A stretch of 64,000 nucleotides of DNA. Origin: Ianthella basta (lineage: Eukaryota; Porifera; Demospongiae; Verongiida; Ianthellidae). Positions 12,327 through 56,512 of this stretch are shown here, in pieces. The translations under genes were made by a program, and so were the position numbers. The notes beneath the pieces were generated by a model. It was not told the DNA's origin, ran no database searches, and worked only from the letters and a program-made list of their open reading frames with translations. The DNA is taken from positions 5,239,306 to 5,303,305 of the forward strand of contig OZ025875.1 in NCBI GenBank assembly GCA_964019415.1, in the 5' to 3' direction. Numbering within the stretch: the stretch's first letter is position 1; each line of letters begins with the position of its first letter.

Positions 12327-12668
12327 TCACACAAATGACCCCTCATTGGAGCTGTGTCCATCAGATGGTTCCACTTGATGCAGTGTCTCCCCATTCACTG
12401 TGATGGCGAGGCAGGAGAGGTTCTTGATGAGGAGACACTGGACCTCAGACAAGAGACCAGGTGGGACACCAGATACTACAGCACCTCTGATGTGGGAGTT
12501 CTCAGACAGTCCTGTGCACACACACAAAGTCTCGGCTAGACCAGGGGAGATGTTGATGTACATCCATGGGTCATATGGAAACTGATTCTCATGTCGAAAG
12601 ACAACAGACACTTGCCCACACTTCACACCACAGAGCAGAGCCCTCAGTCTGAGCTGGTCGTGTTGTGT
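12327..12668 (-). CDS. terminal exon of the NLR LRR region
   Basis: It starts after the acceptor GTCTGCAG in phase 0, matching the phase-0 donor of the exon at 12,762. It encodes 113 residues ending SSNEGSFV and TGA. The early part is LRR-like (LRLRALLCGVKCGQVSVVF) and the end resembles a closing cap (LLSEVQCLLIKNLSCLAITV). This stop defines the 3' end of the coding region. No poly(A) site was pinned down. Confidence 0.7.
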   Translation of the reverse strand, partial: TQHDQLRLRALLCGVKCGQVSVVFRHENQFPYDPWMYINISPGLAETLCVCTGLSENSHIRGAVVSGVPPGLLSEVQCLLIKNLSCLAITVNGETLHQVEPSDGHSSNEGSFV

Positions 12669-15600
12669 CTGCAGACAGTGAAGTAGGAGACAGAGAATGA
12701 GACAGATGAGCAGAAATGAGCACTTCACAACATGAGACAGTTAGCCGACACAATCCCTTACCATGTATCTCAAGCGAGTAGTGTCTAGTGTCAAGGTGGC
12801 CACACTGCTGTCCTGCAGTACCTCCAACACTTCCGTGGGGTCAGGGAGGGACACAGACAACTTCACCAGACGACCCACCACATTGGGAAGGAGTTGTGCA
12901 ACAGCAGGACCTGCAGCTGAGGGACACAGTCAAACAGAACACCTCATTCATGAAACACTTTGCTGGCATTCAGTGCATTGGGAGATGTGCATCAAACTGC
13001 ACCAACACAACAGATACCCAGTGCTGGATATTACTGACCTGGATCCAGGCAGCTGATTGATAGTGTCTCAATGGATGAACTGTGGCACACTCCCTCTATA
13101 CAGCTGTTGAGGGCATTGAAGGACTTTGGACCTTTGTCGAGGTACAGCTCAAAGGCTCTAATACTCTTGCACTGGCCCAACAGGTCAGACACACCAATCA
13201 GCTGAGGAGACATGTACAATTTGCAGTTACAAGAATACAGCTCATGACTGTGTCCTGACCACACAGAACAGCAGTGATCCTCACACCTTCCGCAGTGTGA
13301 CATATGATACAGTAGGACTGCACACACAGTGTACTAGTGTGACTTGAGGGGTACTGAGTGGGTAAAGTGCAGCATGGACCCATTGACACACATCTCACCT
13401 GTTCAGGGTGGTCCCTTAGAGCAATCCCCAGGGATGACACAGAGCAGTGCTCTGCATTCTGGGACAGAACATGGAGCACTGGTACAGGGTTGATGTCACA
13501 GATGGAGAGCTTCTCCACACTCCGCAGTGACAACACATTGTCAGCCAGGACCTGTCCAGCACCTGAACACCACAAGGAAAGACACAACACAACAATTGTC
13601 TATAAACATTCTTGTTTGGTTACATAAAGTTCACTCCACACCTGCACAACACCCACACACAGAGGACACACAACAAACACTCATAGACACAAGTACAAAT
13701 GGTCTCATTTACATATCACTCACTGGAAGATCTGCACCAGACTCTCAGTTCCTGCAGAGATGGACTTTGGCTGAGACTGGACAGACAGGCCTCAAGGAAG
13801 GTGAAATCATCCAGGATCAGCTCCACCTTTTTCATACATGGTGCAGTGGCCAAACTAGAGGACACTTTGGACCAGTCCTCTGTGGTGGGCTACAAATGCA
13901 AGACAAGACAGTACCAAACAGACACACACTAGTCATCACAGACATACAAGCCACGTGCACACAAATTGTGCATACATGTAAATGGATGTCTCCAGTAATA
14001 TAGGGACACTAGCAGAGGTCCAACTGCCTACGTAAGCTTGGACTCGTGCACATGTAGACACTTTCATTAGAGCTGAATTGTGACAATTGTAGAATTGTAG
14101 CAAAAAATTCCAACTGTTTGGTACACGTGGAAACAGAGTCACCAACACATATTCCTCACTTTGTGTGAGTACAATTGGCATTACTCAAGCGCGGAATAGC
14201 GGAATAATGGAATTAGATATTAAAATGGCGGACGACTCGTATGCAAACAAATCTTGCTGGTGTGTGCTTCTCCCCAGAAAGGTTCGAATTTCAAATGAAA
14301 GGAAGGGAAATGGGTATATTGACAACTGCTTGGAAGTGGTTTGTGTGCTTCTTTGAATGAAAGGTAAAAGTGGAAAGACAGTTTTCCCTCAGTAGCCCTC
14401 AGTATGTATACATAGCTACGTAGGGAGAATGTATAGGTGTGTACTAGACATCCAATGAGAATATCATAAGGAAGTTAACTGGGCACATAATGTACGTTTT
14501 GTGTGTGAGTGTGTATATGTATGCATAGCACACATGCATGGAGGCTAGACACATGTAACTGTGTTCATGCAGTACACAGTGGATAGAGCGGCCCCTTGTA
14601 AGGTGAGAGGACTTGGCTGCAATCGTATCAAGGGAAGTGGCCAAAGTGAGACTTGATAGTTTGTCACAAACATCTTCTCACTGAAGGCAAACTGCAAGAA
14701 AGCTCATACAGGTCCATGAGCAAAGAGTGAGCACAACTTGTAAAATCATTGTCTAGACCAGGGCTACTTCTCATCTGATCCTGATATCATAGATAGAAAT
14801 GCCAGGTCACTATCTGATCTGAAACTTGTGTGAAGATCAAGTCAAGCGCTTCTAGTTACCCTGACTTAGTGGTGTACTCCTAATGCACTCCTGAGTCACT
14901 ACAATACACAACATCAGACACTGATATCAAAATAGTCTACTGTACTGTGTTGAGGTACCACTCCTGTCCCTCATAGTCAATGTCGGAGGGAATGAAATAT
15001 GTACACAATTCTCCATTCAAGGCTAGGTACTCACAATTCTTACCATGTCACCTACTATGGAAGAATACCTCAATTGGGTGATAGCATATGTAAGCCCAAC
15101 CTGTCTTCCTCACTCAATTAGAGTGCCCATACTGCACATACCCCACACAGGAGTGGGGAGTGATAGCTAGGTATACAGTACATAGGCCGGCTGCATATTG
15201 TGATAGATGTATACTGGAAATGGATGGAAATAGTGAATGTATTGAGCTACGTATGTATGGTCAGTTCCAAATGGAGTGGAGGTGACCCATTTGCATCTGA
15301 GACAGTGGCTTCTAAATATCTGAGTCAGTGAAGGGAACGGGAAGGCTCTGCTGATGGATAGTAAGGCGTTTAAGGTCTTCACTGCCGGCAGCAGTGGACA
15401 GCCATATTACGTATCACTGTGCACCGTCCGTATACTTAGAGTATGCAAACAAAATGGCCGTCCTTCGGAAATGCCATTACATAGTAATAGGCAGAAATTA
15501 CTTAGCATATGCACCTGGTTGGTTCAAGACAGATACCTTTACACAAGTGCATGTCAATTTCCTGTTATTATATCATTTAGACAGCCAGTATACAGTGCCA

Positions 15601-54340: not shown

Positions 54341-54429
54341 TATACAATCCTCTACTCAACAATGTACGACTAATGAATTCTGTACGTACTGTTTACTGTA
54401 CCATCAATCTGCACTTCCCACCCGTATAA

Positions 54430-56512
54430 TTAACTATTGTCTGAGGTATCTTCAAAGACCTTTCGGGCTGAAGGGCTTTCACAGTTTAAATCAATCGACG
54501 GATCCCCATAACCTACAATATGGCACATACTGAACACAGCAATGGGTTGGAAATGATCTGAAGATATAGTCCCATATGGACGAAGTGCTTTTACCACAAA
54601 ACTTAACTTTTGACACACATAATTAGTCCATCAGAGTACCACAACACTTACCAGGTAATGTAAGCTCAGACAGATGCAGTCTCATTGAGACCAAAGGATT
54701 AGCAGAGGCCACTGACGCGATACATGGGATGGCATATTTTGTTGTCTGTGTATAAAGCTTATGCCCATAGTCCACTTCCCTCAAATGAGTAGTCTTGCTC
54801 AAGCACTGTCCGGTGACATAGAAATCGTATGACGACATACACAGCCAAAATCCGAGACGAATATCCAATTGGCTGGCGATGGCCGTAGTGAGTTGGGTGT
54901 TGCCACTTTCATGGAGGGCATAGAACAGGAATAGAAGGCGACGATTATGATCAACACAGGTGCTTGGCAGTTCCTGCCCCTTCACAACCTCCTGCACTCC
55001 TGAAACCTGCAACTGTGACAAGCCGCAATAGAAGCGAAAGACCATGGCAAAGCGAGGATCGTTGATGTTCTTTTCCCAGAAAGCCGTCTGCTCCTCCTCA
55101 TTCATTGCAGTGATGTGCTTAGCACAGAGGTACTCTTGATATGTGCTGTGCACAAAGTTGTAGGTCAGGTGGTCCAGGGCCCCGTGCTGTCTGGGATGGA
55201 CATTGAGTAGACTCATGCCATCAAACCTATGCTTCAGCTTAGCACAAGAAGAAAGGCAAGTCTTGATGACTATTTCTTCATCAAAAACCAGTTCCTTCTT
55301 TAGAAAGCACAAGTATGACAGCTTGGATAAGCAGTCAAGTGTAGATTGCAAGGAATCAGGCAAGCCTTCCAAATTGTGTTGGATGGAAATATCCAATCCT
55401 TCCTTCTCAGCTTGGCGCTGCAGCAGCTGAACAAGAAGTGTTGTGTAGCATTGGGTCAGAGTGTCGGGAAGGTTGTAGTTCTTCCATGAGAATACAGAAC
55501 AGAGTAACCACAGGTTGAGAGGGATGTAAGTGGAGCCAGCGAGATCAGGTCTATCAGCAATGGCCAAGAGAAATTTGGTTGTAGCAGAGGGGTCTCCCTC
55601 ACGATCAAAGAAAGCTTCGACGTACTGCAATACTTCTGGGGTACCAAAGCCCTGCACTTCATACAAGATGGCCCTGCGCCATATCTTGTTCAGCTGCGTC
55701 ACAATTCCGGGACGACAGGTGACCACGATCTGAGCTTCTTTCAACTCCCCTTTCAGCATCTTGGTCACTATGGAGGCCTTGTCCACTAGCAGCTCTGGAC
55801 GTTCGTCTAGACCATCAAAGATAATTTGCAGGCCCCTCCCTTTGTTCTTTGTGATCAGTTGTGCTAGCTCGTCGTAATCTGAGTCATCACCTGGAAAACT
55901 GTAGCAGGAGAGGAGGTCACGGAGTGATCTTGCTTCTGCTACCTTCTTTTCTCTTACATAAAAGAGGAGAATGAGAGAGTGTGAGGAGGCCTGTGGGTCA
56001 GAACTGAATTGAGAACAGATGTGCCGAGTGAGGGAAGTCTTGCCCACTCCTGGTGGGCCAAAGACAATGTGCAGTGGCTTCTTGTGCCGCTGGAGGAAAT
56101 GGCTGTGAGACAGAAGATCATTACTTACTTGATCGTCATCATATGAGACACTCTCAAATGCCAGTCCGGACATGTCTTCATCTGAGTCACTCTCAAATGT
56201 CAGTCTGGACATGTCTCCATCTGGGTCATTTTCAAATTCCAGGCTGGACATGTCTCTATCTGAGTCAATCTCCCATGATTCTGTCTTGGACATGTCTCCA
56301 TCCTGCTGACTGATAAACTCCACAGTGGCCTTCTGGAAATTCTTCAGAAACTGGGCAGTATCTTTGTTCTTGTGCTGGTTTGGGTGACTTTCAATAACCC
56401 TCAATCCAATATAATCAACATGAGGATATTCCCCAATGATACATTCTTCATCGTAAGCATCTCGAACACGCTCAAGGTATTCCTGTGCCAGTGGACTACC
56501 ATAGAGGCAGTT
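54430..56512 (-). CDS. NACHT-domain NLR protein, main exon plus short 3' exon
   Basis: NLRs are cytosolic STAND ATPases that oligomerise on ligand sensing in innate immunity. The main exon, 54,652-56,512, starts after acceptor CCTCCACAG in phase 0 and is open for 620 codons. From the exon start: linker NCLYGSPLAQEYLERVRDAY; four 13-14-residue acidic repeats (about 72-125); Walker A GPPGVGKTS at 152-160; Walker B IIFDGLDE at 230-237; sensor-like VVTCRPG at 263-269; and STYQEYLCAKHI, typical of the region after NACHT. It ends SMRLHLSELTLP plus donor CCTG|GTAAGT (phase 1), like the class B LRR exons. After a 94-bp intron an exon at 54,430-54,557 (DHFQPIAVFSMCHIVGYGDP to TAA) would stop the protein without LRRs; splicing to the distant LRR array is also phase-compatible. 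The start codon and any N-terminal Death/CARD exon are not visible. Confidence 0.88.
56155..56305. repeat. in-frame coding minisatellite, 39-42 bp units
   Basis: The motif ggacatgtct recurs at 56,168, 56,207, 56,246 and 56,288 (spacing 39, 39, 42). On the minus strand each unit encodes an acidic segment of the type DxDMSxLxFExD in the linker just before the NACHT domain. The spacing is always a multiple of three, so unit number can change without breaking the frame. Confidence 0.85.

What the first reader, a model, noticed from the sequence alone, without database searches (positions are those of the whole stretch)
12327..56512. Phase-interlocked LRR exon array: two exon classes alternate so that any A-B pair can be added or skipped in frame
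On the minus strand fourteen LRR exons alternate between class A (phase 1 in, 0 out) and class B (phase 0 in, 1 out). The order is kept from about 46 kb to a terminal exon at 12,327, and thirteen of the fourteen are fully open. Neither exon alone is symmetric, but each A-B pair is. The receptor can therefore grow or shrink by whole LRR pairs, through duplication or alternative splicing, without frame damage. The NACHT exon at 54.6-56.5 kb ends in phase 1, as a class B exon does. Seen directly: exons, splice sites, phases. Inferred: one gene, combinatorial use.
Basis: partly seen in the sequence, partly recalled or inferred. Interest (0 to 1): 0.9.

Follow-up and report, generated by a model that had tools for sequence, protein, structure and literature searches.

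The report
Receptor repeat exons duplicate in pairs
An animal immune-type receptor gene carries its recognition repeats on two alternating kinds of exon, neither of which can be added or lost alone without breaking the reading frame, and its sister genes differ in the number of these exons by whole pairs.

Summary
The observation mostly holds. On the minus strand a NACHT exon (56,512-54,652) is followed by 13 LRR exons and a terminal exon ending at 12,327. All 13 are open, flanked by AG and GT, and alternate A (phase 1 in, 0 out) and B (0 in, 1 out). That relative, an intronless copy of a sister gene on another chromosome, joins NACHT|A|B|A|B|A at the predicted borders, so exons of these types are transcribed and spliced in this order. 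Twelve paralogous genes all run A-B-A...A with 7, 9, 11 or 13 LRR exons (four read in full, eight wholly or partly from search coordinates): they differ by whole pairs. A repeated pair encodes four predicted LRRs, and codons at predicted strand ends are hypervariable. Duplication of pairs in DNA is supported; combinatorial splicing is untested. Published human NLR and brown-algal ROCO LRR exons are single-exon modules; none of the 46 LRR exons examined here is frame-preserving alone. A new variant of a known kind.

The parts
54652..56512 (-). NACHT exon (1861 nt), acceptor cacag, donor gtaagt, phase 1 out
   Evidence: (PF05729, E 9.3e-19); 3' border confirmed by the intronless copy
44203..44330 (-). 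LRR exon 1, class A (A44), 128 nt
   Evidence: both borders confirmed by the intronless copy
43967..44126 (-). LRR exon 2, class B (B44), 160 nt
   Evidence: both borders confirmed by the intronless copy
41340..41491 (-). LRR exon 3, class A, 152 nt, repeated pair 1
   Evidence: borders of this exon type confirmed by the intronless copy, which cannot tell the repeated A exons apart
37211..37382 (-). LRR exon 4, class B, 172 nt, repeated pair 1
   Evidence: borders of this exon type confirmed by the intronless copy
32570..32721 (-). LRR exon 5, class A, 152 nt, repeated pair 2
28851..29028 (-). LRR exon 6, class B, 178 nt, repeated pair 2
22259..22410 (-). LRR exon 7, class A, 152 nt, repeated pair 3
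18476..18650 (-). LRR exon 8, class B, 175 nt, repeated pair 3
15776..15927 (-). LRR exon 9, class A (repeated type), 152 nt
13724..13889 (-). LRR exon 10, class B, 166 nt
13399..13562 (-). LRR exon 11, class A, 164 nt
13039..13201 (-). LRR exon 12, class B, 163 nt
12762..12916 (-). LRR exon 13, class A, 155 nt
12327..12668 (-). terminal coding exon, phase 0 in, ends with TGA

Best explanation
This is one NLR-type receptor gene, about 44 kb from the NACHT exon to the stop codon, in an unnamed animal genome rich in NACHT exons. Its LRR domain is built from two-exon cassettes. Class A exons are 2 modulo 3 long (phase 1 to 0) and class B exons 1 modulo 3 (phase 0 to 1), so only whole A-B cassettes can be gained or lost in frame; a repeated cassette codes for 108 to 110 residues, four predicted LRRs. 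Cassettes have been duplicated in the DNA together with their introns, and paralogs now carry 7, 9, 11 or 13 LRR exons. Shown: exon chain, phases, five splice junctions by exon type (in an intronless copy of a cluster member), pair-wise count differences, and excess amino-acid change at predicted strand ends. Inferred: independent duplication in two branches, unequal exchange between homologous introns as the mechanism, removal of unpaired changes by selection, and diversifying selection on a ligand-binding face.
Against: No RNA. The intronless copy reaches only into the fifth LRR exon, comes from a cluster member that need not be this gene, and cannot tell which repeated A and B exons it holds, so a transcript lacking a pair would look the same. 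Exon lists of 6 of 12 genes rest on search coordinates alone and of 2 more on three LRR exons plus coordinates; phases were not read in the six. The genes share ancestry, so 12 of 12 are not 12 independent events. Pfam finds no LRR family in the spliced protein at E up to 1; the frame holding B44 alone has one weak LRR match (E 0.033, below cut-off). A truncated, unpaired B remnant exists in G1. One of four B splits gave p 0.06, and some random draws gave an undefined value (a warning), which can make p values there slightly too small. At columns with four or more residues pS is raised too (0.25 in A, 0.19 in B). The strand ends were read off the model after the variable columns had been seen; the most variable codon, A21, is one past the strand end.
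Confidence: 0.85

Rival explanations
1. Combinatorial splicing: the locus makes many receptors by skipping whole A-B pairs.
For: Each A-B pair has a length divisible by 3, so pair skipping keeps the frame. Brown-algal ROCO LRR arrays show multiple splice variants (PMC11378527, passages), and human NLRP3 is alternatively spliced in its LRR (PMC6642158, passages and section 6).
Against: No RNA evidence either way. In W the two exons of a repeated pair are separated by introns of 3.5 to 4.0 kb and would have to be left out together. The human precedent rests on exons that are frame-preserving singly. The intronless copy shows A-B-A order by type, but a copy lacking a pair would look the same, so it does not decide.
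Confidence: 0.2
2. The alternating phases are only inherited: one ancestral A-B pair was copied again and again, and nothing has selected against single-exon changes.
For: Exons of one class share phases, and the repeated ones are close in sequence. The genes share ancestry, and many B cassettes are closest to cassettes of the same gene (6 of 9), as plain copying would give.
Against: Pair numbers differ within both branches of the subfamily, with different B types, so several changes kept parity. W alone has eight introns of 1.9 to 6.4 kb between LRR exons, where breaks could add or remove one exon. The only further exon piece found in four genes is a truncated B, as expected if unpaired pieces decay.
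Confidence: 0.3
3. The duplicated region is a graveyard of pseudo-exons, and the real gene ends near 43.9 kb or starts near 13.9 kb.
For: The region holds element-like repeats, and the introns are long. pN/pS over whole A exons is 1.21, as relaxed constraint could also give.
Against: All 13 exons are open with AG and GT borders. Repeated-type A and B exons are spliced in the intronless copy. pN/pS outside the strand-end codons is below 1, though not by much (0.060 against 0.081). Each of the 12 genes has one terminal exon and one NACHT exon.
Confidence: 0.05

Closest known systems
Human NLR genes (NLRP3 and relatives), exonic modularity of the LRR domain (PMC6642158, 2019)
   Same: LRR domain on many consecutive short exons; NLRP exons carry two LRRs each; fixed exon border within the repeat (section 6 read). 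Structural matches of the fold model include NLRP3, NOD2 and NLRC4.
   Different: Human NLR LRR exons are described there as strictly frame-preserving. Here 0 of 46 LRR exons is, and the symmetric unit is two exons and four predicted LRRs. Paralogs here differ in the number of units.
Brown-algal ROCO LRR exon arrays (PMC11378527, 2024, passages read; it cites Zambounis et al. 2012, which I did not see)
   Same: LRR exons shuffled and duplicated within a gene, with positively selected sites on the concave side.
   Different: There each LRR is one 72-base exon in phase 2; the receptor is an LRR-ROC-COR protein, not NACHT; alternative splicing was reported there and is untested here.
Sponge NLR expansions (Dysidea avara, PMC12909245, passages read; Amphimedon queenslandica, Yuen et al. 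2014, not held, recalled)
   Same: Large NACHT-LRR families; in D. avara some groups were reported to cluster by number of LRRs.
   Different: The words exon and intron do not occur in the D. avara main text, so exon phase and pair duplication are not treated there.

Membership tests
animal NLR (NACHT-LRR) receptor | NACHT NTPase domain | tested here: met
   PF05729, E 9.3e-19, 68.3 bits against a cut-off of 26.7
animal NLR (NACHT-LRR) receptor | C-terminal leucine-rich repeats | tested here: met
   Predicted beta-alpha solenoid and LRR proteins as best structural matches, for the intronless copy P0121, not the window gene itself. Pfam LRR models do not reach E 1 in the spliced window protein, so this rests on a model of mean pLDDT 70.6.
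animal NLR (NACHT-LRR) receptor | N-terminal effector domain (CARD, Death, Pyrin) | not tested
   Exons upstream of 56,512 were not sought; the NACHT exon frame shows no such Pfam match
human-type NLR exon modularity | each LRR exon frame-preserving by itself | tested here: not met
   0 of 46 LRR exons in four genes have a length divisible by 3 (unconstrained borders)
human-type NLR exon modularity | alternative splicing of LRR exons | not testable with these tools
   no RNA data held
brown-algal ROCO LRR arrays | one 72-base phase-2 exon per LRR | tested here: not met
   exons of 128 to 178 bases with alternating phases
brown-algal ROCO LRR arrays | ROC-COR GTPase in the same protein | not tested
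   NACHT is found instead; ROC-COR was not specifically sought and exons upstream were not read
brown-algal ROCO LRR arrays | diversifying change at LRR strand or concave-side sites | tested here: inconclusive

The most novel reading that the evidence does not exclude
The two-exon lock works as a quantiser: four-LRR cassettes, each with hypervariable residues at its predicted strand ends, are traded between tandem paralogs and differ in copy number between individuals. Paired skipping during splicing then adds a second, cell-level layer, giving an invertebrate receptor repertoire built from interchangeable, frame-locked cassettes.
Probability: 0.15. Interest if true: 0.8.

Novelty: new variant of a known kind. 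Interest (0 to 1): 0.5.

Why it matters
It shows an NLR subfamily whose LRR length changes in steps of two exons because neither exon is symmetric, the opposite of the published human rule that NLR LRR exons are each frame-preserving. It offers a natural test of whether LRR copy number evolves by cassette exchange in the DNA or is varied by splicing, with an intronless copy as evidence of splice order and hypervariable sites that point to a possible binding face.

Tried and rejected
The 46 kb exon: rejected (frame break and 5 stops; acceptor and donor missing in G1; no protein hit in G2 and G3; absent from the intronless copy). Its frame is open in G1, which is a point in its favour but not enough. 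An artefact of forcing phases: checked with unconstrained borders. Pfam and PDB sequence searches of the spliced LRR region: no LRR match (one search took the first 637 of 802 residues); the low-E Pfam rows there (TPPII_C, Lock_Gag1-like, PHA01746-like) have no matched stretch passing on its own and were treated as chance. One-to-one orthology of cassettes by position: not found. With 400-base flanks the nearest relative lies in another gene for 11 of 13 repeated-type A exons but only 3 of 9 repeated-type B exons, so the history is mixed. Naming the species: no paper with this genome size was found in one search, so none is named. Whether other NLR subfamilies of this genome use the same two-exon unit: not tested. 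Literature: searches listed no paper that, from its listing, treats alternating-phase LRR exon pairs, in an open-licence library only; the main Amphimedon NLR paper is not held. Passages of a zebrafish NLR paper (PMC4852459) gave nothing on exon phase.
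Full report
What is there. The window lies at G000:C8:5,239,306-5,303,305 of an unnamed 209 Mb animal genome with at least 102 NACHT matches. On the minus strand the NACHT exon spans 56,512-54,652 (PF05729), with acceptor cacag, donor gtaagt and phase 1 out. Downstream I find 13 LRR exons and one terminal exon ending in TGA at 12,327. They alternate A, B, A ... A. Class A exons enter in phase 1 and leave in phase 0; class B enter in 0 and leave in 1. 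The spliced LRR and terminal part reads 802 residues without a stop.

The fourteenth exon. NACHT leaves in phase 1, so it cannot follow NACHT in frame: joined between NACHT and A44 it gives 5 stops, while NACHT joined to A44 gives none. In G1 the same stretch has an open frame, but the acceptor AG is changed and the donor is deleted. G2 and G3 gave no hit at E 1e-3. The intronless copy described next lacks it. I reject it as an exon of this chain.

Evidence of splicing without RNA. Searches with A and B exons hit C2:4,681,911-4,682,648, where A44, B44, A and B lie side by side. The fetched stretch (L047) is an intronless copy of a cluster member. It joins the 3' end of NACHT to A44, B44, a repeated-type A, a repeated-type B and the start of another A at the predicted borders, then breaks off inside that A exon. 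Its 279-residue frame is open and is also in another public record (P0121). Its closest matches differ by exon: G1 for NACHT (90.9%) and the last A (95.8%), G3 for A44 (96.1%) and B44 (97.0%), W for the first A (94.3%, the exon at 15.9 kb), and G3 narrowly over W for the B (93.4 and 93.3%). So it need not come from the window gene, and it does not tell which of the repeated exons it holds or whether a pair was skipped. A poly-A tail and target-site duplication were not looked for; one end is truncated and the other lies outside the fetched stretch.

Twelve genes, whole pairs. (81 rows; 71 of 447 candidates scored) lists 12 NACHT exons at 67% identity or more, four of them with a separate N-terminal row; the other rows are at 37% or less. 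Exon lists were made for all 12: four from DNA read in full (W, G1, G2, G3), the rest from search coordinates (order checked, which also repeats G1). For D2 and D4 the first three LRR exons and the start of the fourth were read in L026 and L025; lengths agree. All 12 lists alternate A, B ... A. Counts: 7 in one gene (D1), 9 in five (G1, G5, D2, D5, D6), 11 in four (G2, G4, D3, D4), 13 in two (G3, W). Terminal exons: 13 hits, 12 in these genes and one on C2 at 4.424 Mb, beside one A and one B hit, the B with stops, and with no NACHT row near it; it is not counted. Two further weak hits on C2 at 4.109 Mb are also not counted. In the near branch the added pairs carry one B type, in the far branch another, from which I infer at least two independent rounds. 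On C10 two pairs sit 1,759 bases apart.

A caution on phases. In one search the borders were chosen under the phase of the class, so the 46 of 46 is partly by construction. With borders picked by splice score and open frame only, 43 of 46 show the expected phases and in the other 3 the expected acceptor ties in score. The intronless copy gives five junctions with no phase assumption. In the six genes known from coordinates alone, phases were not read.

History of the cassettes. Repeats of 150 bases or more cover introns as well as exons between 14 and 43 kb, so whole segments were duplicated. With 400 bases on each side, the nearest relative lies in another gene for 11 of 13 repeated-type A exons (for example W A41 and G2 A74, 2.7% different; W A22 and G2 A67, 6.6%), but for only 3 of 9 repeated-type B exons. 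The A result suggests exchange between paralogs; the B result suggests copying within genes. I did not test either formally. A search of the four genes for further pieces at E 0.5 found one: a truncated B of 19 residues in G1.

Where it varies. Among 13 repeated-type A and 9 repeated-type B exons of four genes, the codons for the last residue of the four strands have pN 0.47 and pS 0.06; the other codons have 0.06 and 0.08; 0 of 20,000 random choices of two codons per exon did as well. The eight most variable codons are A21, A43, B23, B55, A46, A44, B25 and A20: four strand ends and four places one to three residues beyond. Sites chosen from some genes and tested in others: 4 of 4 splits for A at p 0.0112 or less, 3 of 4 for B at p 0.026 or less, one B split at 0.062 (the splits overlap, and a division warning means some p values may be slightly low). 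Flanking introns differ by 6 to 13% on average. Against a simple reading: pS is also raised at columns with four or more residues (0.25 in A, 0.19 in B), and pN/pS over whole exons is 1.21 in A but 0.74 in B. These are counts on related sequences, not a fitted selection model, and I saw the variable columns before the strand positions.

How it most likely works. The gene encodes an NLR-like receptor whose LRR arc is lengthened or shortened in steps of a pair of exons. Because each exon alone shifts the frame, unpaired gains and losses should give broken proteins and be lost, leaving pairs (inference). The lock restricts rather than frees splicing: a single LRR exon cannot be skipped in frame. 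Whether pairs are skipped is open.

Against what is known. Human NLR LRR exons are described as strictly frame-preserving, and NLRP exons carry two LRRs (PMC6642158, section 6 read). Brown-algal ROCO genes have one 72-base phase-2 exon per LRR, with exon shuffling, alternative splicing and positively selected concave-side sites (PMC11378527, passages). The sponge Dysidea avara has NLR clusters that differ in LRR number; its main text does not use the words exon or intron (PMC12909245, passages). The listings showed no paper on a two-exon, phase-locked LRR unit, in an open-licence library only. I file this as a new variant of a known kind.

Noticed in passing
G000:C2:4681300-4682900 (L047): Intronless copy of a cluster NLR gene, cut off inside an LRR exon and followed by unrelated sequence. 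The frame of the LRR part meets stops in the NACHT part, but 279 residues stay open.
   Followed up: yes
G1, cluster coordinate 12557-12500 (C8 near 4,992,500): Truncated, unpaired B exon (19 residues) that keeps its donor, between a complete B and the next A; perhaps the trace of a lost pair.
   Followed up: partly
G000:C10:3,035,671 and 3,037,430: Two A-B pairs 1,759 bases apart, with equal search scores, in a compact paralog: looks like a recent single-pair duplication.
   Followed up: partly
window 60244-61044 (-): Transposase-like frame with a DDE_3 match (E 2e-26) upstream of the NACHT exon.
   Followed up: partly
window 50409-50852 (-): Reverse-transcriptase fragment (RVT_1, E 9.3e-6, below its cut-off) in the intron between NACHT and the first LRR exon.
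   Followed up: partly
window 20.6, 30.5 and 38.7 kb (+): Three similar element-like open stretches, one in the A-to-B intron of each repeated pair; a related piece lies near 14.5 kb.
   Followed up: no
window 58722-59915 (+): 398-residue open frame without a Pfam match at E 0.01, on the other strand beside the gene.
   Followed up: partly
G000:C10:325952 and C10:1316189: NACHT matches inside very long open frames of 2,224 and 3,877 residues, against about 350 to 720 for the other matches listed.
   Followed up: no
G000:C2:4109047 and 4109726: Two further weak B-like matches about 680 bases apart, outside the 12 genes.
   Followed up: no
window 53,641-54,333 and 43,118-43,797: Two related stretches (about 73 to 80% identical) just downstream of the NACHT exon and of the first B exon, also present in the paralogs.
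   Followed up: no
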